Position numbers and translations under genes: made by a program | Shown: one piece after another, positions 2,197 through 61,560 of the stretch | Layout: each line of letters starts with the position of its first letter | Numbering within the stretch: position 1 is the stretch's first letter | DNA from: Plantactinospora mayteni | GTDB lineage: Bacteria; Actinomycetota; Actinomycetes; Mycobacteriales; Micromonosporaceae | Assembly: GCF_016862935.1 (NCBI RefSeq) | Contig: NZ_BONX01000028.1 | Coordinates: 62,001-126,000, forward strand | Length of the DNA stretch: 64,000 nucleotides | Direction of reading: 5' to 3' | The notes under the pieces: generated by a model | Database searches by the model: none | What the model saw: the letters and a program-made list of their open reading frames with translations, nothing else | Told to the model about the DNA's origin: nothing

Positions 2197-2320
2197 CAGC
2201 GGGACGGTCGGGGTCACTCGGTGGCAGGGCGGTCGGTGTCACGCAACAGCGGGGCGGTCGGGGTCACTCGGTGGCAGGGCGGTCGGTGTCACGCAACAGC
2301 GGGGCGGTCGGGGTCACTCG
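2197..2320. repeat. Tandem repeat, 50-bp unit, straddling the GGDEF-EAL stop codon
   Basis: Two exact 50-bp copies (2221-2270 and 2271-2320) and a partial third (about 2197-2220). Each 50-mer is itself two diverged 25-bp halves. Read on the minus strand, the first copy begins in the last codon of the GGDEF-EAL gene, and every half-unit repeats a GAGTGACC- or GCGTGACA-like stop context. Confidence 0.95.
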
Positions 2321-5300
2321 GCGGCGGGGCGGGGCTTGGGCACTGTGCCGGGTGCGGGGGCGTCGTCGAGCCAGCGCAGCACGTCGCGGTCCTTCAGCGG
2401 GCGGGCGAAGAGGTAGCCCTGCCCGGACGCGCAGCCCATGTCCAGCAGGATGGTCCGGACCGCCTCCGTCTCCACCCCCTCGGCGATGATGTCCAGGCCG
2501 AGGGTGCCGGCCAGCCGGATGATCCCCTCCACCAGCAGCCGCTGCCGCCGTGACGACGCCACCGTCTCGGTGAACGACCGGTCGATCTTGAGTACGTCGG
2601 CCGGCATCTGCTGGAGATAACTCAACGACGAGAACCCGGTGCCGAAGTCGTCGATCGCGACCCGCAGACCGTGGGCGCGCAGCTCGGACAGCTCGGCCCA
2701 GACCGGCTCCTGGTCCCGCAGCAGCAGGCTCTCGGTGATCTCCAGCATCACCCGGTCCGGCGGTACGTCGGCGGCGGCCAGCGCCGCGCGCACCGTACCG
2801 ACGAAGCCCGGGGTACGGAGCTGTCGGGCCGAGACGTTGATGCTCACGTACGGCGCACCGGTCGCGCCCCGCTCGGCCCGCCACCGGGCCACCGCACCGG
2901 CCGCCTGGCGCAGTACGTAGTCGCCGATCGGTTCGATCAGCCCGGTCTCCTCGGCCAGCCCGATGAACAGCTCCGGCGGTACCGGTCCCCGGGCCGGATG
3001 GTGCCACCGGGCCAGCGCCTCGAAGCCGACCGCCGCCCCGGTCCGCATGTCGACGATCGGCTGGTAGTTCACCGAGAAGCTGAGCTTCTGCACCGCCTCG
3101 GTCAGCGCCGCCCGCAGCTCCAGCCGCTCCACGATCGCGGTGTGCAGCTCGGACTGGTAGCGGCACCAGCGCCCCTTGCCGGCCCCCTTGGCGACATAGA
3201 GCGCCAGGTCGGCGCGTTGCAGCAGCTCACCCGCATCGCTGGCGTCGGCGGTGGTGGCCACCCCGACGCTGACCGACCCGTTGACCACGGTGTCGCCGAC
3301 CTCCAGCGGTTCGGCGAGCGCCCGGACCAGGTGGTCGGCGACCCGCTCGACCTGCTCCGGATCGTCCGCGTCCGGGATGAGTACGGCGAACTCGTCGCCG
3401 CCGAGCCGGGCCACCAGGTCGTTCGGCCCGACGATGTCCCGCAGCCGCTCCCCGGCGGCGATCAGCAGCGCGTCCCCGATCGCGTGCCCGTGCGTGTCGT
3501 TGACGGCGGTGAACTCGTCGAGGTCGATGGAGAGCGTGCCGACGGTACGGCCGCCGTCCCGGGCCTTCTCCACCGCCTCGTACACCTGGTCCTGGTAGGA
3601 GGCCCGGTTGGCCAGTCCGGTCAGCGAGTCGTGCACCGCCCGGTGGGTCAGCTCCTGCTCCAGCCGGACCCGTTCGGTGATGTCCCGCATGGTCAGTACG
3701 AAGCCGCGTACGGTCCGGTCTTTGCGCAGGTCCCGGCAGGTCACTTCGAGCTGCACCCGCTGCCCGTCCGGTCGCCGTACGCTCCAGTCGACGCCTCGGC
3801 GCTCCGATTCGGCGAGCGCCGTGTCGAGCAGGGCGGCGACCGAGAGCTGGTCCTCGGGGGAGAGCACGGTACCCAGGTCGGTGCAGTCGGCCGGCTCGAC
3901 CCCGAGCACGGTCCGCAGGGACGGGCTGGCGTACCGGACCCCGTGGTCGTCGTCGACGATCAGGATCACGTCCGCCGCGTTCTGCACCAGGCTGCGGAAG
4001 TATGCCTCGCTGTCCCTGCGGTTGATCTCCTGGGCCAGGCTGATCCGTTCCAGCGCCATCGCCGCCTGCGCTGCCAGTACCTCCAGCGAGTCCCGCAGCG
4101 TCGGCAGCAGCCGGCTGTCGGTGGCGACCAGCAGCGCACCGACCCGGGGTGCCCCGCTGGCCCCGCCGACCCGGCCGTCACCGACCAGCGGGCAGAGCGC
4201 CACGGTCTCGAAGCCGCGCAACTGCTCGGCCAGCGCCGGTTGCAGGGTCCGGACCCGGAGCAGCCGGCTGCGCCGCGCGGCGGCTGCGGTCGGGGCCGGA
4301 TAGAAGGGTGACGGCGTGGCCATCCCGGGGCCCCAGATGCTCACCGCCGCCGCCGGCACCCCGTCGGTGTGGTTGATCGTGAAGACGATCCGGTGCGTGG
4401 ACTGCCGGGGCACCAGCCGGGCCACTGCGGTCCGTACCGCCCGGCGCACCTCGGCGGTGTCGGTCGCGGCCACCAGTTCGGCGCCGGACTGCCGCAGGCT
4501 CCGCTCCCGGGCCACCGCCTGCCGGTGCCCGTCCACCGCGTCGCCGAGCCGGCTCAGCACCAGGGCGAAGACCATCCCGCCGGCCACGGCGATCACCGCG
4601 CCGTCCCGGACGTCCCCGTTCACCACCTCGACCAGCAGCACCGCCGGGGCGAGCGTCGCGGCGATGCCGAGCAGGACCAGCCGAGCCTTGTCGATCTCGC
4701 TGTCCGGTGGCGCGGCCGGCTCGGTCAGCGTCGCCATCGACGGATGCAGCGCGGCGGCACCCCAGCCCATGTAGAAGGCGAGCCAGCCCAGCTCGGTCGG
4801 CCCGCCCGGCTGCCAGTCGCCACGCAACAGCGCCGCGCCGTAGACAAGGTCGGCGAGCAGCATCCCGGCCGCGCCGGCGGCCAGCAACAGCCCGGCGACG
4901 CTGCCCCGCGAGGTCACCGCCACCCGTACGGCGGTGGCCAGCAGCAGCACGTCGAGCAGCGCGTACGCGGCCAACACCGACTGCTCGAACGTGCTCGGCC
5001 CCGAACCGACCAGGTACGGCCGGATCACCAGTACCCAGAGCAGGAAGGCACCGGCGGTGGTGAAGATGAGGAAGTCGAGCAGTCCGGACCGGTCCCGGGC
5101 CCCGGTGGTGGAGCGGGTCAGCCCGAGCAGCCCGGCACCGAGCAGCGGCACCATCACCAGATAGCAGAGGTCCGAGACGAGCCCGGAGTCGGCCGGGGAG
5201 TCGCCGAGCGGCAGGTTCGCGGCGAGCAGGTAGACGGTGTCGCCGGCCGCGAAGACCCCGAGTGCCGCGACAAAGAGCCACCAGGCGTACGCGCGCTCCG

Positions 5301-5454
5301 GCCGGTAGCGGCGGATTCCGACGGCGACGGCCGCCATGCTGGTCAACCCGAACGCGACGGTCACCACCGTACGCGGCACCGGCAGGGCGAAGAAGCCGAC
5401 CAGCAGTACACCGTTCACCCCCGCGTACCCGGCCAACAGTTTCCGAACTGACAC
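2314..5454 (-). CDS. Membrane GGDEF-EAL protein with PAS domain
   Basis: Predicted cyclic di-GMP turnover enzyme of 1,046 residues. Roughly residues 1-340 form eight or more hydrophobic segments. A GAF-like stretch (about 370-510) and a PAS domain (about 515-630, YFRSLVQNAADVILIVDDD) follow. The GGDEF domain (about 640-795) has an intact active loop, RLGGDEFAVL, and DLDEFTAVND. The EAL domain (about 805-1040) keeps FEALARW, INVSARQL, EITES, DDFGTGFSSLSYL, KIDRSF and AEGVET. Both activities could therefore be present, although in many tandem proteins only one is used. GTG 5454 was chosen because AGGAG lies just upstream and any longer frame would run into the kinase gene. Confidence 0.93.
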   Translation of the reverse strand: MSVRKLLAGYAGVNGVLLVGFFALPVPRTVVTVAFGLTSMAAVAVGIRRYRPERAYAWWLFVAALGVFAAGDTVYLLAANLPLGDSPADSGLVSDLCYLVMVPLLGAGLLGLTRSTTGARDRSGLLDFLIFTTAGAFLLWVLVIRPYLVGSGPSTFEQSVLAAYALLDVLLLATAVRVAVTSRGSVAGLLLAAGAAGMLLADLVYGAALLRGDWQPGGPTELGWLAFYMGWGAAALHPSMATLTEPAAPPDSEIDKARLVLLGIAATLAPAVLLVEVVNGDVRDGAVIAVAGGMVFALVLSRLGDAVDGHRQAVARERSLRQSGAELVAATDTAEVRRAVRTAVARLVPRQSTHRIVFTINHTDGVPAAAVSIWGPGMATPSPFYPAPTAAAARRSRLLRVRTLQPALAEQLRGFETVALCPLVGDGRVGGASGAPRVGALLVATDSRLLPTLRDSLEVLAAQAAMALERISLAQEINRRDSEAYFRSLVQNAADVILIVDDDHGVRYASPSLRTVLGVEPADCTDLGTVLSPEDQLSVAALLDTALAESERRGVDWSVRRPDGQRVQLEVTCRDLRKDRTVRGFVLTMRDITERVRLEQELTHRAVHDSLTGLANRASYQDQVYEAVEKARDGGRTVGTLSIDLDEFTAVNDTHGHAIGDALLIAAGERLRDIVGPNDLVARLGGDEFAVLIPDADDPEQVERVADHLVRALAEPLEVGDTVVNGSVSVGVATTADASDAGELLQRADLALYVAKGAGKGRWCRYQSELHTAIVERLELRAALTEAVQKLSFSVNYQPIVDMRTGAAVGFEALARWHHPARGPVPPELFIGLAEETGLIEPIGDYVLRQAAGAVARWRAERGATGAPYVSINVSARQLRTPGFVGTVRAALAAADVPPDRVMLEITESLLLRDQEPVWAELSELRAHGLRVAIDDFGTGFSSLSYLQQMPADVLKIDRSFTETVASSRRQRLLVEGIIRLAGTLGLDIIAEGVETEAVRTILLDMGCASGQGYLFARPLKDRDVLRWLDDAPAPGTVPKPRPAAE

Positions 5455-5455
5455 G

Positions 5456-5491
5456 GCTCTCCTGCCGATCGTCGCTCTCCTGCCGATCGTC
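5456..5491. repeat. Exact 18-bp tandem duplication carrying the ribosome-binding site
   Basis: gctctcctgccgatcgtc occurs twice in perfect tandem (5456-5473 and 5474-5491) immediately upstream of the GGDEF-EAL start. On the minus strand each copy reads GGCAGGAGAGC, so the Shine-Dalgarno sequence is duplicated. The inner copy is at functional distance from GTG 5454. Confidence 0.95.
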
Positions 5492-5693
5492 GTTGGCGGC
5501 GGCACTGGTCCAAACTGTTTCGCCGATCGGTCTACCAGTCCTCGATGCGCTTCGCCATCACCCCGCCGGGTACTGGTACCAGCCGATGGGCAGTAACCAG
5601 TCCGGAATCCTCCGGTGACTGGCCGGAATGGACCCGACGCCGAGCCGGACGTGGGTCCGACCAGCCCGACTGGTTCCAGCCGTGCCGGTGACG

Positions 5694-6416
5694 TCAGGCC
5701 GGATTGGACGGTGCCATCCGGACGACGAGGTCGGCCCGGTCGATCGTGCCGGCGATCAGGTCGGCGTTGCGCTGGTCGGTACCCCGGGCCCGGGCCGCCG
5801 CCGCCAGCGGCTCCCGACCGAACGCGATGTGCCGCTCGGTCAGCCGGTGCAGTCGCTCCGCCTCGTCGAGGTCGAGGAACCACACCTCGTCGAGGAGGTC
5901 GCGTACCTCGCCCCAGGGCTGGTCGGGCAACAGCAGGTAGTTGCCCTCCACCACCACCAGCGGCACCGACGGGGGTACCGGGATCGCCCCGGCGACCGGC
6001 TCCTCCAGCTCCCGGCGGAACTCGGGCGCGTACACGGTCTCGGTGCCGGTACGCAGCCGGCGCAGCAGCGCGACGAACCCGGCACCGTCGAAGGTGTCGG
6101 GCGCGCCCTTGCGGGCGTGCCGGTCGAGCCGGTGCAGTTCGGCCTCGGCCAGGTGGAAGCCGTCCATCGGCACCAGCTCGGCGATGCCGTCCAGGGCCGT
6201 CACCAGCAACCCGGCCAGGGTCGACTTGCCGGCGGCGGGCGCGCCGGTGATGCCGAGCAACCGGCGCGGCCCGGTCGACGCCAGCGCCCGGGCCCGGTCG
6301 ACCAACTGGTCCAGCGTGTACGGAGACGGGACCTGCGGAGACGGGGTGTACCGAGACGGGCGGTACGGAGACGGGACCTGCGGCGACGGGGTGTCTGGGA
6401 ACGGTTCGGGGCGCAC
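5694..6416 (-). CDS. Nucleoside/nucleotide kinase family P-loop protein
   Basis: A 240-residue P-loop kinase of the uridine kinase/phosphoribulokinase-like superfamily. Walker A is GAPAAGKST (about residues 56-64), followed by a substrate-side MDGFHL motif. VVVEGNYLL is the Walker B-like strand, and RHIAFGREP is the lid region. Related actinobacterial proteins are annotated as fructose or pantothenate kinase-like, and the substrate cannot be told from sequence. The only usable start, GTG 6416, gives an N-terminal tail of proline-rich repeats (PSPQVPSPY) encoded by 15-bp DNA repeats. The gene begins 7 bp after the metG stop, so the two are probably cotranscribed. Confidence 0.82.
   Translation of the reverse strand: MRPEPFPDTPSPQVPSPYRPSRYTPSPQVPSPYTLDQLVDRARALASTGPRRLLGITGAPAAGKSTLAGLLVTALDGIAELVPMDGFHLAEAELHRLDRHARKGAPDTFDGAGFVALLRRLRTGTETVYAPEFRRELEEPVAGAIPVPPSVPLVVVEGNYLLLPDQPWGEVRDLLDEVWFLDLDEAERLHRLTERHIAFGREPLAAAARARGTDQRNADLIAGTIDRADLVVRMAPSNPA
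6318..6394. repeat. In-frame 45-bp repeat (three 15-bp subunits) in the kinase N-terminus
   Basis: Copy 1 spans 6318-6362 and a partial second copy 6363-6394. Subunits resemble gtacggagacgggac. Because the period is a multiple of three it encodes repeated PSPQV/PSPYR/PSRYT-like pentapeptides ahead of the P-loop domain. Confidence 0.9.
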
Positions 6417-6423
6417 CCGGGAA

Positions 6424-7911
6424 CTATCCCACCCGGTCGGCCGCCGCGAGCCGGGGGAAGAGCGGCGCGGCCCGGGTCACCGGACGGCCGCCCGGATATC
6501 CGCCCCAGGCCAGGGCGTCGGGGACCCGTGGGGCGTACTCGTCGAGCCCGATCTGCCGCCAGATCCGCTCGGCGGTCTCCGGCACCGCCGGCGCGGCCAG
6601 TACGGCGACGATCCGCAGCGCCTCCAGCGCGTCCCCGAGTACGGTGGCCGCCTCGGTCGAGTCGGCCGGCAGCCGCCACGGCTGCGCCGAGACCAGGTAG
6701 GAGTTGGTCGCCGCCACCAGCCGCCACGCGGCGGCCAGCGCGTCGGAGGGCTGTCCGGCCGCCCAGCCGTCCGCACTGGCCTCCGCCCAGCGGGCGGCCA
6801 CCGGGGCGAGCGGGGAGTCCCGGCTCGGCGCCGGTCCGGTCCCGGCACACCGGGACACCACCAGCGCGGTCACCCGGGAGAGCAGGTTGCCGAGCGAGTT
6901 GGCCAGGTCGGCGTTGTAGCGCGCCTCGACCGAGCCGAGCGAGAACTCCCCGTCCGGGCCGACCGGGTTGTCCCGGAGCAGGTGGTAACGCAGTCCCTCC
7001 GGGCCGAACCGGTCGAGCAGGTCGTCCAGGGCGACGGTCCGCTCCCCCGACTTCGCGATCTTGCTGCCGCGTTGCAGCAGGAAGCCGTGCACGGTGATCC
7101 GCTCCGGCAACGGCAGGTCGGCGGCGAGCAGGATCGCCGGCCAGTAGATGGCGTGGAACCGCAGGATGTCCTTGCCGATCACGTGCCGGGCCGGCCACCA
7201 GCGGGAGTACTCCGGTCCGGGCCAGCCGGCGGCGGTGAGATAGCTGCCGAGGGCGTCGAACCAGACGTACGTCACCTGGGTCGGGTCCCAGGGCAGCGGA
7301 ATTCCCCAGTCCAGGCCGGCCCGGCTGATCGAGAAGTCGGTCAGTCCCCGGCGCAGCCAGCCGAGCGCCTCGTTGCGGCGGCTGGCCGGCCGGACCGCGT
7401 CCGGGCACCGGTCGAACCACTCGGCGAGCGGCCGGGCGAACTCACTCAGCCGGAAGAACCAGTTCTCCTCGCCGACCAGCTCGGTCGGCCGGCCGTGCAC
7501 CGCGCAGACCAACTCCGCCGTGTACGCCTCACAGCCGACGCAGTACCGCCCGTCGTACCGGCCGGGGCGGAACTGACCCGCGTCGTGTACCCGGGTCAGC
7601 AGTGTCGTCACCGTCTCCCGGTGCCGGGCGGAGGTGGTCCGGACGAACTCGTCGTACCCGATGCCGAGCCGGTCCCAGGTGGCCCGGAACCGGCCGGCGG
7701 TGCGTTCGGCGAGCGTGGCCGGCGCGATGCCCGCCTCGGCCGCCGCCCGGCGCACCTTGGCGCCGTGCTCGTCGGTGCCGGTGACCAGCCGGGCGGGCCG
7801 CCCGGCCAGGCGCTCCCAGCGGGCCAGCGCGTCGGCGAGCACTGTCGTGTAGGCGTGCCCCACGTGCGGCAGGTCGTTGACGTAGTAGATCGGCGTGGTC
7901 AGGTAGGTCAT
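6424..7911 (-). CDS. metG: Methionyl-tRNA synthetase (short form)
   Basis: Class I aminoacyl-tRNA synthetase that charges tRNA-Met, 495 residues. The HIGH motif appears as HVGHAYT near residue 15, and the KMSKS loop as SKIAKSGERT. The connective peptide has one CxxC pair (YCVGCEAYTAELVC). The C-terminal half is the alpha-helical anticodon-binding domain, and there is no EMAPII/Trbp111 extension. ATG 7911 was chosen because GGAGGA lies 6 nt upstream and TYLTTPIYYVNDLPH is the normal beginning. A short ORF and strong hairpin precede the gene and probably regulate it. The P-loop kinase follows after 7 bp. Confidence 0.96.
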   Translation of the reverse strand: MTYLTTPIYYVNDLPHVGHAYTTVLADALARWERLAGRPARLVTGTDEHGAKVRRAAAEAGIAPATLAERTAGRFRATWDRLGIGYDEFVRTTSARHRETVTTLLTRVHDAGQFRPGRYDGRYCVGCEAYTAELVCAVHGRPTELVGEENWFFRLSEFARPLAEWFDRCPDAVRPASRRNEALGWLRRGLTDFSISRAGLDWGIPLPWDPTQVTYVWFDALGSYLTAAGWPGPEYSRWWPARHVIGKDILRFHAIYWPAILLAADLPLPERITVHGFLLQRGSKIAKSGERTVALDDLLDRFGPEGLRYHLLRDNPVGPDGEFSLGSVEARYNADLANSLGNLLSRVTALVVSRCAGTGPAPSRDSPLAPVAARWAEASADGWAAGQPSDALAAAWRLVAATNSYLVSAQPWRLPADSTEAATVLGDALEALRIVAVLAAPAVPETAERIWRQIGLDEYAPRVPDALAWGGYPGGRPVTRAAPLFPRLAAADRVG

Positions 7912-7960
7912 GGCGTCCTCCACGAGTGGTCGGGAGGGGCCCGGCCCGGCGCACACGGAA

Positions 7961-17167: not shown

Positions 17168-17204
17168 CGGCGGGCGCCGGGAGCAGCCGACCCGAAGAGC
17201 CCCT

Positions 17205-17345
17205 TCGATCCGGAGAGCCCTGTCGGTCAGGAGAGCCGTCGGTCAGGAGAGCCCCGTCGGTCCGGGGAGTCCCGTCGATTCGTAGGGGCCCGTCGATTCG
17301 GGGGCCCCGTCGGTCAGGAGAGAAGGGCGGTCAGGAGAGCAGGCG
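17205..17345. repeat. Degenerate tandem repeats after the dapC stop codon
   Basis: About nine copies of an 11-20 bp unit, best seen on the minus strand as CTCTCCTGACCGACGGGG. The first copy is the end of dapC itself (CTC TCC TGA CCG). Later copies have drifted to CCCGAATCGACGGG and CTCTCCGGATCGAAGGGG. They occupy the space between dapC and the ThuA promoter. Confidence 0.9.
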
Positions 17346-20409: not shown

Positions 20410-20514
20410 CGCACGTCCCTCTTGGCCTCGGGCCCCCACCCGTCCGGGGGCGTCTTGCCACAGAGTTCTACCACCCGTGGCTGAGTGGATCCATGGTGCG
20501 AGCGAGCCGGAGCC

Positions 20515-20588
20515 GAGCACGGGCCGGCGCGGGGCACGAGCACGGGCCGGCGCTGGGGACCGGAGCACTGGCCGGCCGGGGATCAGAG
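20515..20588. repeat. Degenerate 23-25 bp repeats after the membrane-gene stop
   Basis: Three copies starting at 20515, 20538 and 20563 share gagcac(g/t)ggccggc. On the minus strand they begin at the TGA of the gene ending at 20583. Confidence 0.8.
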
Positions 20589-21062
20589 CCCGAGCTGCCG
20601 GGACTCCGGGCCGGGCGGATTCATGAGCATGCGGAAGCCCATGATCGCGAAGGTCACCGAGCCCGCGAAGATCATCACCAGCCCGACCCAGTTGTCGGCG
20701 GCGATCAGCACGTCGCCCTCGGAGGTACCACCGGCCGCGACCACCATCAGGGCGAACCAGACGACGGCGGGCAGCGCGAGCGCCCAGCGGCGGCCCACCA
20801 CCCGGGGCGCGAACCAGCCCAGCGCCACGTTCGCCAGCACGGTGACCAGCACCGAGACCCCGATCAGCGCGCCACCGACCCGGAGCATCGACAGGATCAG
20901 CTCCAGCACGACGGTGACCGCCGCGGCCACCACCGCGACCACGCCACCGACCACCCGCAGCGCCAGGTCGACCGCCCGGTCCGCCGCCGACGGCTCGGTG
21001 GGCGGCGGCGGGACGGGCTCCAACTCCGGCGTCGTGGACACGGACGGGCTCGGCAGGCTCAC
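20583..21062 (-). CDS. Membrane protein coupled to mshB
   Basis: A 159-residue protein. A proline-rich cytoplasmic N-terminus (about 1-30, [19 protein letters not shown]) is followed by four hydrophobic helices. [21 protein letters not shown] is the first, and [22 protein letters not shown] the last. Its GTG start overlaps the mshB stop as GTGA, so translation is coupled. No catalytic motif is visible and no link to mycothiol chemistry is known from the sequence alone. Confidence 0.8.
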
Positions 21063-22176: not shown

Positions 22177-24489
22177 ATGGCCGGCTCCACCACATCGTCG
22201 ACCCCTCGGCTCTACGATCACGATGTGGACTACCCGGAGTTGGCCGCCCGTACCCGCCGGTTCAGCCGCGGCGCGCCGCGGGCCGTGACGGTGGCCGGCG
22301 ACGGCTCGCGGGTGCTCTTCCTCCGCTCCGGCGGCCCCACCGACCCGGTCGACGCGCTCTGGCTGCTGGACGTCGCCGACGGCACCGAACGGCTGGTCGC
22401 CGACCCCGCCGACCTGCTCGCCGACCCGGCGGCCGACACCGACCCGACCGCCGCCGGTCCGGTCGCCGACCCCGTCGAGCTGGCGGTGGCCGCCGCCGGT
22501 GCCCGTTCGACCGGCGTCCCCGGTGCCGAGCCGACCGTCGACACCAAGCAGGCCGGCGCGCCCCACTCGACCGAGCGGGCGCTGCGCGAACGGCTCCGGC
22601 TGAGCGCCTCCGGCATCGCCTCGTACGCCACCGACCCGGCCGCCCGGATCGCGGTCTTCACCCTCGACGGCCGGCTGTTCCGGGCCGACCTGGTGCACGG
22701 GGACGTGGTCGAGGTCGCCGTCTCCGGCCCGGTGGTCGACCCCCGCCCGGACCCGACCGGCCAACGGCTGGCGTACGTCACCGACGCCGCCTGCGACGGT
22801 GGCCGGGTCGGGCAGTTACGGGTGGTCGACTCCGACGGCACCGACACCCTGCTGGCCGGCGAGGACGCCGGAGTCACCTGGGGGCTGGCCGAGTTCGTCG
22901 CGGCCGAGGAGTTCGACCGGTTCCGGGGCTACTGGTGGGCGCCGGACGGGCGGTCGATCCTGGCCGCCCGGGTCGACGAGTCCCGGCTGCCCCGCTGGCA
23001 CCTGCACGACCCCGGTGACCCGGCCAGCCCGCCGCGCTCGGTGGCGTACCCGCGCTCGGGTGGGCCGAACGCCGAGGTGAGCCTGCACCTGCTCGATCTC
23101 GACGGTGGCTGGGTCGACGTGCACTGGGACCGGGAGACCTACCCCTACCTGGTCTCGGTGGAGTGGGCCGAGACCGGGCCGCTGATCACCGTACTGCGCC
23201 GGTTGCAGCAGCACGGGCTGGTGCTGGCGGTGGACCCGCGTACCGGCGAGACGCAGGTGCACGCCGAACTCGCCGATCCGCGCTGGGTCGATCCGGTCGC
23301 CGGCACCCCCCGGCACCTGCCCGACGGGCGGGTACTGGTCGGCGGCGAACTCGCGCACGACGGGTACGACGCCCGCTGCCTCTTCGCCGACGGCACCCTG
23401 CTCACCCCGCCGTCGCTCTACGTGCGCCGGGTGGTCGGCTGGCTGCCGAACCGCAACGGCAGCCCCGACCTGCTGGTCGAGGGGAGCGACGGCGAGCCGA
23501 GCCAGCAGCACCTGTTCCGGGTGCGTACCGCGATCGGGGCCGGCGGGATCGACGCCCGGCGGCTGACCGGCGACCCGGGCTGGCACAGCGGGACGGTCGG
23601 CGGCGACGTACTCGTGGTGCAGTCCCGCTCGCTCGACCAGGCCGGCAGCACCTGGACGGTCTGGCACGGCGACCGGGAGGTGGGCCCGCTGCGCTCGCTC
23701 GCCGCGACCCCGCCGTACGCACCCCGGCCCGCACTGGAACGGGTCACCGACCGCCGGCTGCCGGCCGCGGTGGTCTATCCCGGCAACCACGTCGCCGGCC
23801 GCCGGCTGCCGGTGCTGCTCGACGTGTACGGCGGCCCGGGCCACCAGGAGGTGGTGGCCGCCCGGTCGGCGTGGCTGGAGCGGCAGTGGTGGGCCGACGC
23901 CGGCTACGCCGTGGTCACCATCGACAACCGGGGTACCCCCGGCGTGGCGCCGTCGTTCGAGAAGGTGGTGCACCGGCGGCTGGCCGACGTGATCCTGGCC
24001 GACCAGGCGGACGCGCTGACCGCGCTCGCCGGCAAGCACCCCGACCTCGACCTGGGTCGGGTGGCGATCCGGGGCTGGTCGTTCGGGGGCTGGCTGGCCG
24101 CGCTCGCCGTACTGCGCCGGCCCGACCTGTTCCGGTGTGCCATCGCCGGCGCCCCGGTCACCGACTGGACGCTGTACGACACCGCGTACACCGAGCGCTA
24201 TCTCGGGATGCCGACCGACAGTCCCGAGGTGTACGCCCACCACTCGCTGCTGGAGCTCGCCGCCGAACCGGTACGCGGCTCCGACGAGGTCCGGCCGATC
24301 CTGCTGGTGCACGGGTTGGCCGACGACAACGTGGTGGCCGCGCACACCCTGCGGCTCTCCGCCGCACTGCTCGCCACCGGCCGCCCGCACTCGGTGATCC
24401 CCCTTACCGGTGCCACCCACATGGCTGCCGGTGGCACCGCCGAGCGGCTGCTCGCCATCGAACTCGACTTCCTCCGGCAACATCTCTGA
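22177..24489 (+). CDS. S9 family dipeptidyl-peptidase IV-like protease
   Basis: A 770-residue serine peptidase. An N-terminal beta-propeller (about 20-500) carries a DPP IV-type glutamate motif, FVAAEEFDRFRGYWWAPDG, which in that family anchors the substrate amino terminus. The C-terminal alpha/beta-hydrolase domain has nucleophile Ser in GWSFGG, Asp in HGLADDNV and His in TGATHM. No signal peptide is visible, so it is probably cytoplasmic. The start is ATG 22177, and a GTG at 22225 is possible. The last seven codons and the stop are tandemly duplicated just after the gene. Confidence 0.92.
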   Translation: MAGSTTSSTPRLYDHDVDYPELAARTRRFSRGAPRAVTVAGDGSRVLFLRSGGPTDPVDALWLLDVADGTERLVADPADLLADPAADTDPTAAGPVADPVELAVAAAGARSTGVPGAEPTVDTKQAGAPHSTERALRERLRLSASGIASYATDPAARIAVFTLDGRLFRADLVHGDVVEVAVSGPVVDPRPDPTGQRLAYVTDAACDGGRVGQLRVVDSDGTDTLLAGEDAGVTWGLAEFVAAEEFDRFRGYWWAPDGRSILAARVDESRLPRWHLHDPGDPASPPRSVAYPRSGGPNAEVSLHLLDLDGGWVDVHWDRETYPYLVSVEWAETGPLITVLRRLQQHGLVLAVDPRTGETQVHAELADPRWVDPVAGTPRHLPDGRVLVGGELAHDGYDARCLFADGTLLTPPSLYVRRVVGWLPNRNGSPDLLVEGSDGEPSQQHLFRVRTAIGAGGIDARRLTGDPGWHSGTVGGDVLVVQSRSLDQAGSTWTVWHGDREVGPLRSLAATPPYAPRPALERVTDRRLPAAVVYPGNHVAGRRLPVLLDVYGGPGHQEVVAARSAWLERQWWADAGYAVVTIDNRGTPGVAPSFEKVVHRRLADVILADQADALTALAGKHPDLDLGRVAIRGWSFGGWLAALAVLRRPDLFRCAIAGAPVTDWTLYDTAYTERYLGMPTDSPEVYAHHSLLELAAEPVRGSDEVRPILLVHGLADDNVVAAHTLRLSAALLATGRPHSVIPLTGATHMAAGGTAERLLAIELDFLRQHL

Positions 24490-24510
24490 TTCCTCCGGCA
24501 CCATCGCTGA
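24469..24510. repeat. 21-bp tandem duplication of the S9 peptidase 3' end
   Basis: Copy 1 (24469-24489) is the final six codons plus TGA. Copy 2 (24490-24510) matches at 19 of 21 positions and also ends in TGA. The second copy lies wholly outside the gene. Confidence 0.95.
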
Positions 24511-26679: not shown

Positions 26680-26684
26680 TGGCC

Positions 26685-30332
<3,648 letters not shown>

Positions 30333-30424: not shown

Positions 30425-30585
30425 GGCGCGTCCTGTCGATCATGGCGAGCCGAGGCGGAGTCCAGGCGGCGATCCGGCAAGGCGGAGATTCGGCCGGATA
30501 CCGAGGTTGTATCCGGCCGAATCTCCAACGCCGCCGGTCGTCGTCTGGGCCCGCCGCAGGCCGCCAATGATCGGCAGGACACGCC
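30425..30585. mobile_element. MITE-like palindrome flanked by CTAG
   Basis: A 161-bp non-coding element flanked by CTAG on both sides (30421-30424 and 30586-30589). Including CTAG the terminal inverted repeats match at 21 of 23 positions (outer GGCGCGTCCTGTCGATCAT versus GGCGTGTCCTGCCGATCAT). The centre is an 18-bp perfect inverted repeat (30484-30501 with 30509-30526) around a 7-nt loop. The CTAG duplication and terminal GGCG recall IS5-group elements that target YTAR. No transposase lies inside, so it would need one in trans. The right end abuts the ribosome-binding site of the next gene. Confidence 0.85.
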
Positions 30586-33606: not shown

Positions 33607-33713
33607 AGGAATTCCTCCTGGTCTCGTTCCCGCAGGTCAAATCGGCGTCGGCCTGTTGACGCGTTGATCTTGTTGACGCGCTGATCTCTTGAAAGAAATA
33701 TTCACCCAGGCGG

Positions 33714-39815: not shown

Positions 39816-39900
39816 GGACAGTAAAAGTGACCAACTGAGACATGGTTACAAGTTGCAAACTTTGCGCAGCCAAGACGTGCGGAGTTTGATCCCGGGAAAT

Positions 39901-40463: not shown

Positions 40464-40496
40464 GTCCACCCTCCGATTTCGTCCCGTGATGCACAC

Positions 40497-40529
40497 GTAT
40501 GGGTGGCAGGCGTTCCCTGCCACCCATAC
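40497..40529. repeat. Perfect 14-bp inverted repeat at the transposase border
   Basis: GTATGGGTGGCAGG (40497-40510) and its exact complement (40516-40529) flank the 5-nt loop CGTTC. It separates the leftward membrane gene from the broken ISAs1 transposase. It could be a fused transposon end or a terminator. Confidence 0.8.
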
Positions 40530-41224
40530 GCATCGTCCTGGCCCAGGTCACCATCGAGACCAAGAGCCAGATCCCCGCCTTTGGACCGCTGCTCGACGCC
40601 GTGGAGGAGGTCCTCGGTGACCTGACCGGGGTGCCGTTCATCGCCGACGCGCTGCACGCCCAGACCGACCACGCCCGCCAGGTCCACGGCCGGGACGCGC
40701 ACCTCGCTGTCCAGGTCAAGGGCAACCAGCCCACCCTGTACCACCAACTCAAGACCCTGCCCTGGGCGCAGATCCCGATCGGCCACCAGACCCGCGACCA
40801 CGGCCACGGCCACGGCCGCCGAGAGACCCGCACCGTCAAAGCCGTCACCCTGGCCACCCCGGACGGCATCAGCCTCCCGCACGCCCAGCAGGCCGTACGC
40901 ATCACACGTACCCGACCTCGTCATCTCGATCCCCGCCACCGACGCCGCACCAGCCGACCGACAGGACTGGATCCGCCGGGAGTGACGCATCGAGAACTGG
41001 CTCTACCACGTCCGAGGTGTCACATTCGGTGAGGACCTGCACCAAGCTCGGTCCGGTACCGGACCGGTACCGGACCCGCCGTCATGGCAACCCTGCGTAT
41101 ACCTCGATCGGCTACCCCGCGTCCATGGCCACACCAACATCGCCCGCCCCAGTCCGAGGCGCCAATCGCCGACCACACGACCCTCATCGTCGCCGTGACC
41201 AGCAGATATCCCACAACGCAATGA
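40530..41224 (+). pseudogene. ISAs1-family transposase remnant
   Basis: The C-terminal half of a DDE transposase of the ISAs1 group. Clear blocks are VLAQVTIETKSQIPAFGPLL, DALHAQTDHARQVHGRDAHL, QVKGNQPTLYHQLKTLPW, then in another frame HIENWLYHVRGVTFGEDLHQARSGTG. Shifted again, the final AVTSRYPTTQ stops at 41224. The first half, including the start codon, is absent. At 41055-41076 an exact 11-bp tandem duplication (ggtaccggacc twice) accounts for one frameshift. The element is inactive. Confidence 0.85.
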
Positions 41225-41282
41225 CCTGCAACAAGGGCACAGCCAAGGCATCGTTCAACGTGTCTCGTTACCACAAACTCAG

Positions 41283-41810: not shown

Positions 41811-41860
41811 CTACACTCCGAACAGTTTGGAAGGACCGAAAGCTAGATGAGCCATACATA

Positions 41861-48511: not shown

Positions 48512-48577
48512 CACGTGTCCCTCCCCGAACGAATCCCGCCACCACGTCTTGAGAGCGAATCGATAGCTGTCACCCGG

Positions 48578-53562: not shown

Positions 53563-54951
53563 ATGACATCACCACTCGATCTCGCCGGCCGGGTCGTCGA
53601 ACTGGTCCGGCAGGTCGCCGGGCCGGGTGCCGAGGCGGAGGTCGGCACCGAGTACGCCGAGTTGGCGCTGACCCGGTTCGCGAACTCCTTCATCCACCAG
53701 AACATCGCCGAGGCCGCCACGACGGTGCGTCTGCGGCTGCACCTCGATGGGCGTACCGCCACTGGGTCGTCCACTGTGGTCAGCGGCGAGGGAGTGCGTG
53801 ACCTGGTCGAACGTACCGTCGCGGCGGTCCGGCACTGCCCACCCGACCCGGGCTGGCCGGGGCTGACCGCACCGACCACCATCGACGGGAGCGGCAACTG
53901 GGACGAGGCCACCGCCGCGGCCGGGCCGGAGCAGCGGGCCGAGCGGGTACGCGAGTTCGTCGAGACGGCCGGTGGGCTGGAGGCGGCCGGCTACTGCCGT
54001 ACCGGGCAGCGGGCGGGGGCGTTCGCCAACACGGCCGGGCACTCGGTGACCGGGCGGAGTACCGAGGCGGCGATGGACGGGATCGCCCGGTGCGGCGGTG
54101 CGGACGGGATGGCCCGGCTGGGCTCGTTCCGCCTCGCCGACCTGGCCGGCGGCATCCTCGGCGCGCGGGCGGCGGTGAAGGCGCGGGCCGGAGTCGCCCC
54201 CGTCGAACTCCCCCCGGGGCGGTACGAGGTGGTGCTGGAGCCGACCGCCGTCGCCGACCTGTTGCAGAACCTCTCGACGCACGGCTTCAACGGCAAGGCG
54301 TACAACGAGCAGCGCTCGTTCGCCGTACCCGGGACGGAACAGTTCGACCGGTCGGTGACGCTGGTGGACGACGCGCTGGCCGGCCCGGCGCTGCCGTTCG
54401 ACGCCGAGGGCACCGGCCGGGCCCCGGTCGCGCTGGTCGAGCACGGCATCACCCGTACGGTCGCGCACGACCGGCGGACCGCCGCCGAGGCCGGCACCAC
54501 GTCGACCGGGCACGCCGTCCCGGGCGGTGCGGTCACCGGGGCGGTCCCGCTGCACCTCGGGCTCGCGCCGGCCGGGTCGCCGAACGGGGTGACCCGGCCG
54601 GGTGAGGTCTCCGGACCGGTGGTCGACGCGGACAGCGCCGCGCTGGTCGCCCAGGTACGACGCGGGCTGCTGGTCACCGACCTCTGGTACACCCGGGTCC
54701 TCGACCCGAGGAGTCTGGTCGTCACCGGACTCACCCGTAACGGTGTGTGGCTGATCGAGGACGGTGAGGTGGCCGCCGCGGTACAGAACTTCCGGTTCAC
54801 CCAGTCCTATCCGCAGGCGCTCGCCCCCGGCGCCGTACTCGGGATCGGCCGGCACCCGGTGTTGCAGTCGCAGACCTTCAGCAGCGCCTGGTGGTCGGCG
54901 CTGCCGCTCCGGCTGGCCTCGTGGAACTTCACCGGCGGCGCCTCCGGCTGA
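53563..54951 (+). CDS. pmbA: TldE/PmbA-type partner subunit
   Basis: A 462-residue TldE/PmbA homolog, the non-catalytic half of the heterodimeric protease. It has the family fold but no HExxxH, as expected. FIHQNIAEAATTVRLRLHLDGRTATGS is the N-terminal strand pattern, and LPPGRYEVVLEPTAVADLLQNL the central conserved block. ATG 53563, 22 bp after tldD, so they are cotranscribed. A 33-bp tandem repeat begins at its stop codon. Confidence 0.92.
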   Translation: MTSPLDLAGRVVELVRQVAGPGAEAEVGTEYAELALTRFANSFIHQNIAEAATTVRLRLHLDGRTATGSSTVVSGEGVRDLVERTVAAVRHCPPDPGWPGLTAPTTIDGSGNWDEATAAAGPEQRAERVREFVETAGGLEAAGYCRTGQRAGAFANTAGHSVTGRSTEAAMDGIARCGGADGMARLGSFRLADLAGGILGARAAVKARAGVAPVELPPGRYEVVLEPTAVADLLQNLSTHGFNGKAYNEQRSFAVPGTEQFDRSVTLVDDALAGPALPFDAEGTGRAPVALVEHGITRTVAHDRRTAAEAGTTSTGHAVPGGAVTGAVPLHLGLAPAGSPNGVTRPGEVSGPVVDADSAALVAQVRRGLLVTDLWYTRVLDPRSLVVTGLTRNGVWLIEDGEVAAAVQNFRFTQSYPQALAPGAVLGIGRHPVLQSQTFSSAWWSALPLRLASWNFTGGASG

Positions 54952-54955
54952 CCCC

Positions 54956-55054
54956 GGCACACCCGACGCCACGACGGGTTCTGCCCCTGGCACACCCGGC
55001 GCCACGGCAAGTTCTGACCCTGGCACACCCGACGCCGCGGCGGGTTCTGCCGGT
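54956..55054. repeat. 33-bp tandem repeat after the pmbA stop
   Basis: Three units start at 54956, 54989 and 55022 with ggcacacccgacgcc or a close variant. The period is exactly 33, and the stretch stays open in one frame (PGTPDA-like peptides). It fills most of the gap before the next gene. Confidence 0.92.
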
Positions 55055-56917: not shown

Positions 56918-58843
56918 ATGACTACCCGAATCGAACGACACCACTACGACGTCGTCGTCATCGGTGCCGGCGGTGCCGGCCTGCGGGCGGCGATCGAGGC
57001 CCGGCTCGCCGGGAAGCGGACCGCGATCATCTCGAAGTCGCTGTTCGGCAAGGCCCACACGGTGATGGCCGAGGGCGGCGCCGCCGCCGCGATGGGGAAC
57101 GTGAACAGCCGGGACAACTGGCAGGTGCACTTCCGGGACACCATGCGGGGCGGCAAGTTCCTGAACAACTTCCGGATGGCCGAGCTGCACGCGAAGGAGT
57201 CGCCGCAGCGGATCTGGGAGCTGGAGACGTACGGTGCGCTCTTCGACCGCACCAAGGACGGGAAGATCTCGCAGCGCAACTTCGGCGGCCACGAGTACCC
57301 GCGACTGGCGCACGTCGGCGACCGGACCGGCCTGGAGCTGATCCGTACCCTGCAACAGAAGATCGTCTCGTTGCAGCAGGAGGACAAGAAGGCGCACGGC
57401 GACTACGAGGCCCGGATCAAGGTCTTCGCCGAGACCACCATCACCGAGCTGCTGCTCGACGGCGACCGGGTCGCCGGTGCGTTCGGCTACTACCGGGAGT
57501 CCGGCGAGTTCGTCCTCTTCGAGGCGCCGGCCGTGGTGCTGGCCACCGGTGGGGTCGGCCGGTCCTACCTGGTGACCTCCAACTCCTGGGAGTACACCGG
57601 GGACGGGCACGCGCTGGCGCTGCGGGCCGGCGCCACGCTGATCAACATGGAGTTCCTCCAGTTCCACCCGACCGGCATGGTCTGGCCGGTGTCGGTGAAG
57701 GGCATCCTGGTCACCGAGTCGGTCCGGGGCGACGGCGGGGTGTTGAAGAACTCCGAGGGCAAGCGGTTCATGTTCAACTACGTCCCCGACGTCTTCCGCA
57801 AGCAGTACGCGGAGACCGAGGAGGAGGCGGACCGCTGGTACACCGACCCGGACAACAACCGGCGTCCGCCGGAGCTGCTGCCCCGGGACGAGGTCGCCCG
57901 AGCGATCAACGCCGAGGTCAAGGCCGGTCGGGGTACGCCGGCCGGCGGCGTCTACCTGGACATCGCCAGCCGGCTGCCGGCCGAGGAGGTACGCCGTCGA
58001 CTGCCCTCGATGTACCACCAGTTCAAGGAGCTGGCCGACGTCGACATCACCGCCGAGCCGATGGAGGTCGGCCCGACCTGCCACTACGTGATGGGTGGCG
58101 TCGAGGTCGACCCGGACAGTGGTGCGGCGGCGGGGCACGTGCAGGGGCTCTTCGCCGCTGGTGAGGTCTCCGGCGGCATGCACGGTTCCAACCGGCTCGG
58201 CGGCAACTCGCTGTCCGACCTGCTGGTCTTCGGCCGGCGGGCCGGCGGGCACGCCTCGGCGTACGCCGAGGGGCTGGCCGCCCGCCCGAAGGTGGCGGCG
58301 GCGGACGTCGAGGCCGCGGTGGACCGGGCGCTGGCCCCGCTGGAGCGCGAGGGCGGGGAGAACCCGTACACCTTGCAGCAGGACCTCCAGGCGGTGATGG
58401 GCGACCTGGTCGGCATCATCCGACGCAAGGGTGAGCTGGAGGAGTCGCTGGTCAAGCTGGCCGACCTGCGCGACCGGGTGACCCGGGTGGCCGCCTCCGG
58501 CGGTCGCCGCTACAACCCCGGCTGGCACCTGGCACTGGACCTGCGCAACATGCTGGTGGTCTCGGAGTGCACCGCCCGGGCGGCGCTGGAGCGCGAGGAG
58601 TCCCGGGGTGGCCACACCCGGGAGGACTTCCCGACCATGGCGCCGCAGTGGCGCACCGTCAACCTGGTCTGCTCGCTCGACGGCGACAAGGTACGCCTGG
58701 AGCACAAGCCGCTGCCGAGGATGCGGGGCGAGCTGATCCAGCTCTTCGACCGCGCCGAGCTGGCCAAGTATCTGACCGAAGAGGAGCTGGCGGACTTCGA
58801 CGCCCTCACCGCAGAGGCGCACGCTGAGGAGGCGGCCAACTAA
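56918..58843 (+). CDS. sdhA: Succinate dehydrogenase flavoprotein subunit
   Basis: A 641-residue FAD subunit that oxidises succinate to fumarate. The FAD-binding GAGGAGLRAAIEA, the HTVMAEGGAAAAMG loop near the flavin-linking histidine, the substrate-site FHPTGM and RGDGGVL, and GEVSGGMHGSNRLGGNSLSD are all present. Length and order match actinobacterial Sdh1 flavoproteins (about 646 residues). ATG 56918 with AAGGGCC upstream. Its stop overlaps the sdhB start by one base (TAATG). Confidence 0.96.
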   Translation: MTTRIERHHYDVVVIGAGGAGLRAAIEARLAGKRTAIISKSLFGKAHTVMAEGGAAAAMGNVNSRDNWQVHFRDTMRGGKFLNNFRMAELHAKESPQRIWELETYGALFDRTKDGKISQRNFGGHEYPRLAHVGDRTGLELIRTLQQKIVSLQQEDKKAHGDYEARIKVFAETTITELLLDGDRVAGAFGYYRESGEFVLFEAPAVVLATGGVGRSYLVTSNSWEYTGDGHALALRAGATLINMEFLQFHPTGMVWPVSVKGILVTESVRGDGGVLKNSEGKRFMFNYVPDVFRKQYAETEEEADRWYTDPDNNRRPPELLPRDEVARAINAEVKAGRGTPAGGVYLDIASRLPAEEVRRRLPSMYHQFKELADVDITAEPMEVGPTCHYVMGGVEVDPDSGAAAGHVQGLFAAGEVSGGMHGSNRLGGNSLSDLLVFGRRAGGHASAYAEGLAARPKVAAADVEAAVDRALAPLEREGGENPYTLQQDLQAVMGDLVGIIRRKGELEESLVKLADLRDRVTRVAASGGRRYNPGWHLALDLRNMLVVSECTARAALEREESRGGHTREDFPTMAPQWRTVNLVCSLDGDKVRLEHKPLPRMRGELIQLFDRAELAKYLTEEELADFDALTAEAHAEEAAN

Positions 58844-59934
58844 TGGCGACACAGAACGCGCCGGGCGGCACCGGCAAGCCCGGCACCGCCCGCCACTTCA
58901 AGGTCTGGCGCGGTGACGAGTCGGGTGGCGAGCTGACCGACTACCAGGTGCAGGTGAACGAGGGCGAGGTGGTCCTCGACGTCATCCACCGGTTGCAGGC
59001 GACCGAGGCGCCGGACCTGGCCTGCCGGTGGAACTGCAAGGCCGGCAAGTGCGGCTCCTGCTCGATGGAGATCAACGGCATGCCCCGGCTGGGCTGCATG
59101 ACCCGGATGTCGACGTTCGAGGAGAACGAGACGGTCACCATCACCCCACTGCGGACGTTCCCGGTCATCCGGGACCTGGTCACCGACGTCTCGTACAACT
59201 ACGAGAAGGCCCGGGAGACCCCGGCGTTCGCGCCGCCGACCGACCTTGAGCCGGGTGACTACCGGATGCAGCAGGTCGACGTCGAGCGGTCCCAGGAGTT
59301 CCGGAAGTGCATCGAGTGCTTCCTGTGCCAGAACACCTGCCACGTGGTCCGGGACCACGAGGAGAACAAGGTCGCCTTCTCCGGGCCGCGCTACTTCATC
59401 CGCGCCGCCGAGCTGGACATGCACCCGCTGGACGCGAAGGCGGACCGCAAGGAGTACGCCCAGGCGTCGCAGGGCCTCGGCTACTGCAACATCACCAAGT
59501 GCTGCACCGAGGTCTGCCCGGAGCACATCAAGATCACCGATAACGCGATCATCCCAATGAAGGAACGCGTAGTCGACCGACGGTATGATCCAGTTGTGTG
59601 GCTCGGTAGCAAGATCTTCCGCCGTGGCAAGCAGAACGAGGCCGTACAGGGCCAGACTCCGCGTGACCCCGACGAACTCGGCTCCGTGCACTCGCACGCG
59701 GGCGGGTCGCACGAGCCCGAGGCCGAGGTCGGCGCCGAGCGCGGCGTGCACTGGGGCCGGCAGGTCCCGCACCCGACCGCGCCGCCGCTGGACTCCCGGG
59801 GTCGGCTGGCGATCAGCGAGTTCACCTTCGACAAGGCCGCCGCGCCCTCGCCGTTCGGCGACGACGTGACCTTCCCACTGCCGGCCGAAGGGCTCAACTA
59901 CAGCCACCCGGACCAGCCGCAGGCGAAGGACTAA
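58843..59934 (+). CDS. sdhB: Succinate dehydrogenase iron-sulfur subunit with long C-terminal extension
   Basis: A 363-residue iron-sulfur subunit that relays electrons from FAD to the membrane quinone site. The 2Fe-2S cysteines are in CRWNCKAGKCGSC, and the 4Fe-4S and 3Fe-4S ligands in CIECFLCQNTC and CNITKCCTEVCPEH. The normal domain ends near residue 250. About 110 more residues follow (WLGSKIFRRGKQNEAV, a His/Glu-rich middle, then GRLAISEFTFDKAAAPSPFG). These are in frame and unlike the 248-residue mycobacterial protein. The 3' end overlaps a 29-bp tandem repeat that contains the stop codon. Confidence 0.94.
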   Translation: MATQNAPGGTGKPGTARHFKVWRGDESGGELTDYQVQVNEGEVVLDVIHRLQATEAPDLACRWNCKAGKCGSCSMEINGMPRLGCMTRMSTFEENETVTITPLRTFPVIRDLVTDVSYNYEKARETPAFAPPTDLEPGDYRMQQVDVERSQEFRKCIECFLCQNTCHVVRDHEENKVAFSGPRYFIRAAELDMHPLDAKADRKEYAQASQGLGYCNITKCCTEVCPEHIKITDNAIIPMKERVVDRRYDPVVWLGSKIFRRGKQNEAVQGQTPRDPDELGSVHSHAGGSHEPEAEVGAERGVHWGRQVPHPTAPPLDSRGRLAISEFTFDKAAAPSPFGDDVTFPLPAEGLNYSHPDQPQAKD

Positions 59935-60022
59935 TCCGTTCCGTGCCGAAGGCGAAGGGCTGAACCGTTCCGTGCCGAAGGCGAAGGACTGAGCAGTTCC
60001 GTGCCGAAGGACTGAGCCGTTC
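59922..60022. repeat. 29-bp tandem repeat straddling the sdhB stop
   Basis: Units start at 59922, 59951 and 59980 (ggcgaaggact-like, period 29), with a shortened fourth from about 60003. Every unit carries a stop triplet, TAA in the gene and TGA in the copies. Confidence 0.93.
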
Positions 60023-61084: not shown

Positions 61085-61146
61085 CCGGGCGGGGCCCCGG
61101 CCCGCGGGCTGGTGCGGCAGTGGCGGGCCCCTCCTACCCTCGGATC

Positions 61147-61509
61147 ATGGCAAACGTCACCTATGACCGTCGCGAGCAGCTCAAGCAGATCGAGAGCGGC
61201 CTGCTCGACGGGGAAAAGGTCATCGCCGTCTACGACGCCATCGGCGCGGGCACCGGGTTCATCGGGCTGACCGACCGACGCGTGATCATCCAGGACAAGT
61301 CGTTCATCGGCAAGAAGTTCGCGATCACCAGCATCCCGTACTCGAAGATCACCAGCGTGAGCGTGGTCAGCAACAAGTCCTGGGGTGGTTCGTTCTTCTC
61401 CACCGGCGCGATCGCGATCAACGTCGGCACCCACACCTACGAGGTGGAGTTCCGTGGCGACCAGAAGAGTCACCACGTGCACAACGTGATCCTGCACTAC
61501 ATCTCCTGA
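61147..61509 (+). CDS. Bacterial PH-domain protein
   Basis: A 120-residue soluble protein with a bacterial pleckstrin-homology-like fold (EQLKQIESGLLDGEKVIAVYDAIG...GFIGLTDRRVIIQDKSFIGKKFAITSIPYSKITSVSVVSN...YEVEFRGDQKSHHVHNVIL). LTDRRVIIQD followed by IPYSKITSV is the signature. Function is unknown. ATG 61147 (MANVTYDRREQ) was chosen from where the homologous domain begins. A 15-bp duplication begins at its stop codon (61507 and 61522). Confidence 0.85.
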   Translation: MANVTYDRREQLKQIESGLLDGEKVIAVYDAIGAGTGFIGLTDRRVIIQDKSFIGKKFAITSIPYSKITSVSVVSNKSWGGSFFSTGAIAINVGTHTYEVEFRGDQKSHHVHNVILHYIS

Positions 61510-61534
61510 CCGGCGATCTCGTGACCGGCGACCA

Positions 61535-61560
61535 GGCCGGGCCGGGCTGACGGCCCGGCC
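61535..61560. terminator. GC-rich convergent terminator-like hairpin
   Basis: GGCCGGGCCG (61535-61544) and CGGCCCGGCC (61551-61560) form a perfect 10-bp stem with a 6-nt loop, between the convergent PH-domain and ESX-like genes. Confidence 0.65.

What the first reader, a model, noticed from the sequence alone, without database searches (positions are those of the whole stretch)
2197..61536. Stop-codon-anchored tandem duplications at many gene ends
At least seven genes carry short direct tandem repeats that begin in or at the stop codon: GGDEF-EAL (50 bp), dapC (about 18 bp, about 9 copies), the mshB-coupled membrane gene (23-25 bp), S9 peptidase (21 bp), pmbA (33 bp), sdhB (29 bp) and the PH-domain gene (15 bp, 61507 and 61522). 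Copies usually keep a TGA. Units differ in sequence and length, so this is a positional process and not one repeat family. Possible causes are slippage or end-joining linked to transcription termination. The arrays might also act as backup stops or affect 3' RNA processing.
Basis: partly seen in the sequence, partly recalled or inferred. Interest (0 to 1): 0.72.

Follow-up and report, generated by a model that had tools for sequence, protein, structure and literature searches.

The report
Strain-specific tandem duplications at gene ends
In this actinomycete roughly one stop codon in ten that has spacer DNA behind it carries a short, recently arisen tandem duplication, most likely harmless slippage mutations that survive where they do least damage and not a device built around stop codons.

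Summary
In detail: all seven arrays are where stated, and 7 of 37 window stops with a gap of at least 20 bp carry one. In 1.66 Mb of the same Micromonosporaceae genome 89 arrays touch one of 901 such stops, 29 one of 959 starts. Shuffled spacers give 7-15 arrays, real ones 204; 225 of 231 arrays are singletons.

The stop codon is mostly not the cause. Arrays fill the whole 3' flank; convergent pairs show no extra stop contact (24 against 25.1). Copies conserve the stop no better than other columns, and periods ignore frame. Sisters lack these arrays, but two carry different ones at six of the seven gene ends. Junctions show microhomology, in genes too. Density differs three-fold or more within the genus and tracks coding duplications.

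Best reading: lineage-dependent slippage filtered by selection. Unexplained: a two- to three-fold local excess of units straddling the stop, clear only in codirectional gaps.

The parts
2196..2332 (-). 50-bp array, 2.7 copies, over the stop (2314-2316) of the GGDEF-EAL gene 2314-5454(-)
   Evidence: TRF; sequence; edge -19
17188..17322 (-). 18-bp array, 7.7 copies, beginning 8 nt after the stop of dapC 17331-18368(-)
   Evidence: DapC_actino
20514..20582 (-). 23-bp array, 2.9 copies, directly after the stop of gene 20583-21062(-), which overlaps mshB 21059-22075(-)
   Evidence: MshB
24469..24510 (+). 21-bp duplication over the stop (24487-24489) of the S9 peptidase 22225-24489(+)
   Evidence: Peptidase_S9
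54948..55049 (+). 33-bp array, 3.1 copies, from 1 nt before the stop codon of the PmbA/TldD-like gene 53563-54951(+)
   Evidence: Pfam
59916..60010 (+). 29-bp array, 3.3 copies, over the stop (59932-59934) of sdhB 58843-59934(+); not seen in six other genomes of the genus
   Evidence: SdhB
61501..61531 (+). 15-bp duplication over the stop (61507-61509) of the PH-domain gene 61147-61509(+)
   Evidence: bPH_1
5456..5492 (.). 18-bp duplication in a spacer, not at a stop
6316..6375 (.). 30-bp duplication, 48 nt after the stop of gene 6424-7923(-)
30464..30494 (.). 16-bp duplication, 131 nt after the stop of gene 26679-30332(+)
33654..33687 (.). 17-bp duplication, 122 nt after the stop of gene 33810-34808(-)
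41049..41076 (.). 11-bp array, 2.5 copies, 16 nt after the stop of ORF 40499-41032(+), which is weakly supported as a gene

Best explanation
These are independent, recent tandem duplications, mostly 12-56 bp, made genome-wide by microhomology-assisted slippage at a rate that differs strongly between species of this genus. Selection decides where they are seen. Frame-breaking ones are lost from genes, and ones close to start codons are lost because they disturb promoters and ribosome sites. Ones between a stop codon and the hairpin behind it are harmless: a unit that includes the stop leaves the first copy, and so the protein, intact and only lengthens the spacer. The stop codon is then the upstream edge of a zone of tolerance, and later slippage expands some duplications to several copies. 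Shown here: positions, absence in sister species, unrelated units, no frame or stop conservation, microhomology, the link with coding duplications. Inferred: the slippage mechanism itself and the selective filter.
For: Within-spacer shuffles: start contact 10 against 31.4 +- 4.7, stop contact 72 against 49.9 +- 4.9; convergent spacers at random expectation, 24 against 25.1. Coverage 10-27% of bases within 100 nt of stops, 3-9% within 100 nt of starts in codirectional spacers. 225 of 231 arrays singletons. sdhB array not seen in six sister genomes; different arrays at six of the seven gene ends in G002 or G006. 124 of 129 strong intragenic arrays have periods divisible by three, stop-contact arrays 25 of 72. 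Extra matched bases at junctions 3.3 on average in spacers and in genes, chance 0.8. Spacer arrays and fresh in-frame coding duplications covary over 15 genome sets (Spearman 0.68, p = 0.005). Best hairpins lie just behind the array and are about as strong as in array-free flanks.
Against: Units straddling the stop exceed the simulation in codirectional spacers: 25 against 8.1, while the next 60 nt hold 23 against 22.3 (local p = 1.6e-4); any overlap with the coding tail 29 of 76 against 11.4 (p = 6e-7), and in convergent spacers 19 of 55 against 12.9 (p = 0.04). Sparing of hairpins lowers the codirectional local excess to 2.0-fold (p = 0.013) but does not remove it. The 80 named loci show a similar tendency in both spacer types (3.3-fold, p = 0.024; 2.5-fold, p = 0.058). 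Divergent spacers stay poor in arrays even 100-150 nt from both starts (0.51-0.68 per kb against 1.84 in convergent ones), which a filter on promoters alone explains only if upstream regions are long. Recurrence at the same gene ends (6 of 27 against 7 of 106, one-sided p = 0.025) could also mean hot spots. 10 of 39 spacer and 15 of 44 coding perfect duplications have no extra matched base.
Confidence: 0.7

Rival explanations
1. Mutational hotspot at the stop: where ribosomes leave the transcript the naked nascent RNA anneals to DNA (R-loop) or transcription and replication collide, and the resulting breaks or pauses duplicate the DNA around the stop codon.
For: Excess of stop-straddling units in codirectional spacers; array density convergent 1.84, codirectional 1.28, divergent 0.73 per kb, which follows transcribed 3' DNA; recurrence at the same gene ends in sisters.
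Against: Convergent spacers, also transcribed past the stop, show no local excess at the stop in this genome. In-frame duplications inside genes covary with spacer arrays and have the same microhomology, so the process is not confined to gene ends. No transcript data.
Confidence: 0.14
2. Staggered breaks filled in and joined by the Ku/LigD pathway, not slippage, make the duplications; selection places them as in the best explanation.
For: Ku (one copy) and two or three LigD-type polymerase domains in 7 of 7 genomes of the genus. 10 of 39 perfect spacer duplications have no extra matched base. Small tandem duplications by fill-in and end joining are described for mammalian cells (PMC8355091, abstract and outline seen).
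Against: Extra matched bases in most junctions, mean 3.3 against 0.8 by chance. The pathway is present alike in array-rich and array-poor species, apart from one polymerase domain fewer in G005.
Confidence: 0.1
3. The arrays are functional: spare stop codons, or spacers tuned for 3' RNA processing and termination.
For: Copies that include the stop often keep a TGA; a second in-frame stop lies within 15 codons in 29% of array genes against 15% of others; hairpins follow the arrays.
Against: Stop columns are no better conserved than other columns (p = 0.71); no frame preference, 25 of 72; the in-frame stop distribution as a whole does not differ significantly (p = 0.068); arrays are not shared between sisters.
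Confidence: 0.06

Closest known systems
Short tandem repeats made by slippage between direct repeats in bacterial genomes (PMC4169377; abstract and section 13 seen)
   Same: De novo tandem duplications in bacteria, associated with short direct repeats, abundance differing between related genomes.
   Different: That work starts from a gene under drug selection and genome-wide counts; the section I read does not treat placement relative to stop codons.
TAACTGA direct repeats of Beggiatoaceae (PMC4679880; passages seen)
   Different: One conserved 7-mer, mostly placed upstream of start codons; here unit sequences and lengths differ and arrays avoid starts.
Mycobacterial interspersed repetitive units, MIRU (recalled, no call)
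   Same: Tandem repeats in actinobacterial spacers touching gene ends.
   Different: MIRU is one dispersed sequence family; here 225 of 231 arrays match no other.

Membership tests
Slippage-derived minisatellites / VNTRs | Head-to-tail near-identical copies beyond chance | tested here: met
   204 spacer arrays against 7-15 in shuffles
Slippage-derived minisatellites / VNTRs | Short direct repeats (microhomology) at the junctions | tested here: met
   Mean 3.3 extra matched bases against 0.8 by chance, 39 spacer and 44 coding duplications; 14 and 19 with longer runs were left out
Slippage-derived minisatellites / VNTRs | Copy number varies between strains of one species | not tested
   Only sister species of the genus were compared
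MIRU (feature recalled) | One dispersed repeat family | tested here: not met
   225 of 231 arrays singletons, three pairs
TAACTGA-type repeats | One conserved unit, mostly upstream of starts | tested here: not met
   Units unrelated; start contact depleted, 10 against 31.4
Backup stop codons | Stop in frame and better conserved than the rest of the unit | tested here: not met
   173/191 against 1509/1689, p = 0.71; period divisible by three 25 of 72
Terminators or 3' processing signals | Transcripts end or are cut inside the arrays | not testable with these tools
   No RNA data; predicted hairpins lie behind the arrays

The most novel reading that the evidence does not exclude
Termination of translation creates a lineage-specific hotspot for short tandem duplication at codirectional gene ends, so that the DNA around stop codons of some actinomycetes is duplicated repeatedly and independently at the same genes.
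Probability: 0.14. Interest if true: 0.75.

Novelty: new member of a known kind. Interest (0 to 1): 0.38.

Why it matters
It gives a quantitative picture of how a high-GC genome grows its 3' spacers: about one stop in ten with spacer DNA carries a recent duplication, and the rate differs three-fold or more between species of one genus. That makes the genus a natural comparison for finding what sets the rate of short tandem duplication in bacteria, and it warns that repeats at gene ends need not be regulatory. In ten paper searches (two of them returned nothing, most others were cut to 6-25 listed papers) I saw no listing that describes this pattern; the library holds open-licence papers only, so an earlier report may exist.

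Tried and rejected
Backup stop codons: not supported by column conservation and period frame. One repeat family: rejected. Chance in GC-rich DNA: rejected by shuffles. Strict anchoring at the stop: a first shuffle on 864 kb suggested it (41 against 28.2); convergent spacers gave none, the simulation kept a codirectional excess, and sparing hairpins lowered it. Presence or absence of Ku, LigD polymerase or NucS as cause of the rate differences: all present in 7 of 7 genomes. Age difference between stop-contact and other arrays: none seen (p = 0.29). Assembly collapse as cause of low density: unlikely, since array-poor G003 is one contig and array-rich G000 has 123, one-contig G004 lying between. 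The first sister count gave 0 of 58 for G003 and 6 of 58 for G004; more sequence made these 9 of 283 and 7 of 170. A function of the low-GC island of the window was looked for only by PADLOC and family scans.

Limits: genes were called by a codon-usage script of my own, not by an official annotation; the G000 stretches are long runs of four contigs plus the window, those of G003 and G004 spaced samples; 16 of 247 arrays touching spacers were dropped because they overlap coding DNA by more than one unit; the array-rich against array-poor comparison was grouped after seeing the densities and leaves out the intermediate G004.
Full report
What is there. The window lies in a 9.84-Mb draft genome (123 contigs, handle G000) of a genus with seven genomes held. 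The best named relatives by SdhB are Micromonospora species at about 77% identity, so the family is Micromonosporaceae; the genus is not named. TRF and the raw sequence confirm all seven arrays of the finding. Relative to the end of the stop codon their edges are at -19, +8, 0, -21, -4, -19 and -9. Of 37 stops in the window with a gap of at least 20 bp seven have an array within 10 nt; the window has 12 intergenic arrays, five of them elsewhere. Gene names hold: GGDEF-EAL, DapC, MshB, S9 peptidase, PmbA/TldD, SdhB, bacterial PH domain.

Is it more than chance? I took 1.6 Mb more of the same genome in 80 stretches, called 1340 genes with a codon-usage script of my own and ran TRF (score at least 44, period at least 10). 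Of 247 arrays touching a spacer 231 overlap coding DNA by no more than one unit on each side and were analysed. Run on the spacers alone, TRF finds 204 arrays against 7-15 in five dinucleotide shuffles, and 97 strong ones against none. Periods run from 12.5 to 55.5 (5th to 95th percentile, median 21). By blastn 225 of 231 arrays match no other array. So these are real, independent events. By extrapolation about 530 arrays of this genome touch a stop.

Where do they sit? Random placement inside the same spacers gives 49.9 +- 4.9 stop contacts and 31.4 +- 4.7 start contacts; seen are 72 and 10. Without the window it is 66 against 46.8. The stop excess is in codirectional spacers (stop 48 against 24.7, start 6 against 24.4); in convergent spacers, where both ends are stops, it is 24 against 25.1. 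Array coverage is 10-27% of bases within 100 nt of a stop, 3-9% within 100 nt of a start in codirectional spacers, and under 5% beyond 150 nt. The arrays belong to the whole 3' flank.

Is there a peak at the stop itself? I compared unit positions with all permissible places, leaving out the last 60 nt before a start, then simulated 4000 duplications and ran them through the same detector (2410 codirectional and 1194 convergent ones passed the filters). In codirectional spacers 25 arrays begin up to 20 nt before the end of the stop against 8.1 expected, while the next 60 nt hold 23 against 22.3 (local p = 1.6e-4). Overlap with the coding tail of any size up to 40 nt is 29 of 76 against 11.4 (p = 6e-7) and, in convergent spacers, 19 of 55 against 12.9 (p = 0.04), although convergent spacers show no local excess (p = 0.38). 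When units that break strong predicted hairpins are disallowed, the codirectional excess falls to 2.0-fold (p = 0.013) and the convergent value is 0.75. Five sister genomes pooled give 1.4-fold (p = 0.32) and 1.7-fold (p = 0.14); the 80 named actinobacterial loci give 3.3-fold (p = 0.024) and 2.5-fold (p = 0.058) with small numbers.

What lies behind the arrays? In 47 flanks with one array at the stop and room behind it, the best 40-nt hairpin outside the array lies soon after it (median 13 nt codirectional, n = 36; 9 nt convergent, n = 11), is about as strong as in 350 array-free flanks (medians -21 and -25 against -22 and -24 kcal/mol) and is found at 96-101 nt instead of 50-58 nt from the stop. 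That the hairpin is behind the array is partly built in, since the array starts at the stop, and best hairpins of shuffled flanks are only 2-4 kcal/mol weaker (-20.6). It fits arrays that lengthen the stop-to-hairpin spacer, but it is prediction only.

History. By eye the sdhB array is absent in the six other genomes of the genus, whose sdhAB DNA is 89-95% identical. In the syntenic region none of the seven arrays is shared with the sisters examined by TRF (four genomes; not every gene has an orthologue in each), but sisters carry different arrays at some of the same gene ends: GGDEF-EAL, dapC, S9 and PH in G002, the mshB neighbour and pmbA in G006, none in G003 or G004. Over the four sisters 6 of 27 comparisons with an own array also have one in the sister, against 7 of 106 without (one-sided p = 0.025). 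Ends with long open spacers would give this too.

Origin. Perfect duplications (two or more exact copies, period 12-90) number 117: 53 mostly noncoding, 63 fully coding, one mixed. In those with runs under 1.6 units beyond the first copy (39 and 44; 14 and 19 left out) the match exceeds two units by 3.3 bases on average in both classes, against 0.8 by chance, which speaks for microhomology-assisted slippage; 10 and 15 have no extra base. Of 129 strong intragenic arrays 124 have periods divisible by three, whereas stop-contact arrays ignore frame (25 of 72). Over 15 genome sets spacer-array density covaries with fresh in-frame coding duplications (Spearman 0.68, p = 0.005); G000, G002 and G006 have 39 of the latter in 1.63 Mb of coding DNA, G003 and G005 seven in 0.61 Mb (p = 0.044; G004, set aside as intermediate in spacers, has seven in 0.26 Mb). 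The same process seems to act everywhere and to be filtered by selection.

Rate differences. Stop contact is 89 for 901 stops in G000, 6 for 57 in G002, 9 for 66 in G006, 7 for 170 in G004, 9 for 283 in G003 and 1 for 108 in G005; G000 against G003 plus G005 gives p = 1e-6. In the 80 named loci, grouped by me, it is 1 of 47 in Micromonospora/Salinispora, 8 of 80 in other Micromonosporaceae, 5 of 194 in Mycobacteriaceae, 5 of 134 in Pseudonocardiaceae, 3 of 125 in Nocardia and kin, 1 of 55 in Streptosporangiales, 2 of 44 in Glycomycetaceae, 4 of 35 in Streptomycetaceae, 4 of 42 in Frankiales and other MAGs. So high values are not confined to this genus. Ku, LigD polymerase and NucS are present in all seven genomes of the genus, so the cause of the difference is open.

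Function. In 41 arrays with the stop in the first copy and no indels, stop columns agree with copy 1 in 173 of 191 cells, other columns in 1509 of 1689 (p = 0.71). The next in-frame stop is at a median of 43 codons in 86 array ends and 56 in 635 others (p = 0.068); within 15 codons it is 29% against 15%, as expected when some copied stops fall in frame. There is no sign of selection for backup stops.

Literature. Of the papers found I saw passages of PMC4679880, the abstract and section 13 of PMC4169377 and the abstract and outline of PMC8355091; the rest only as listings. MIRU is recalled.

Verdict. A real, strong, lineage-dependent pattern with an ordinary best explanation: slippage duplications tolerated where they do no harm. 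Open: the codirectional excess at the stop and what sets the rate.

Noticed in passing
Sister genomes G003, G005, G006; e.g. the dapC and GGDEF-EAL ends of G003 (L166-L170): A dispersed element with the core GGAAGGGCCC sits at gene ends of G003, with the stop codon (TAA or TAG) next to or inside it: 36 per Mb in G003, 40 in G005, 30 in G006, 0 in G002 and G004, at most 0.6 in G000. Array-poor species of the genus carry it, array-rich G000 and G002 do not; G006 has both.
   Followed up: partly
13103-13872: A 405-bp, 1.9-copy, 85% tandem duplication inside the ThuA/GSDH/CBM6 protein 13081-16971(-); Pfam finds two F5/8 type C stretches in this protein.
   Followed up: no
about 39800-51000: A stretch of lower GC (0.63-0.67 from 40 to 52 kb) whose genes mostly lack orthologues in the fetched parts of four sisters; it holds an Rhs-core/YD-repeat protein of 2107 aa (41861-48184, -) beside a Laminin_G_3 protein.
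   Followed up: partly
L001:1-93 and L021:1-87 (starts of contigs C23 and C2 of G000): Two contigs begin inside perfect tandem arrays (16 and 31 bp units), so some arrays probably break the assembly and counts are lower bounds.
   Followed up: no
20583-21062 (-): The gene overlapping mshB has no Pfam or NCBIfam hit.
   Followed up: no
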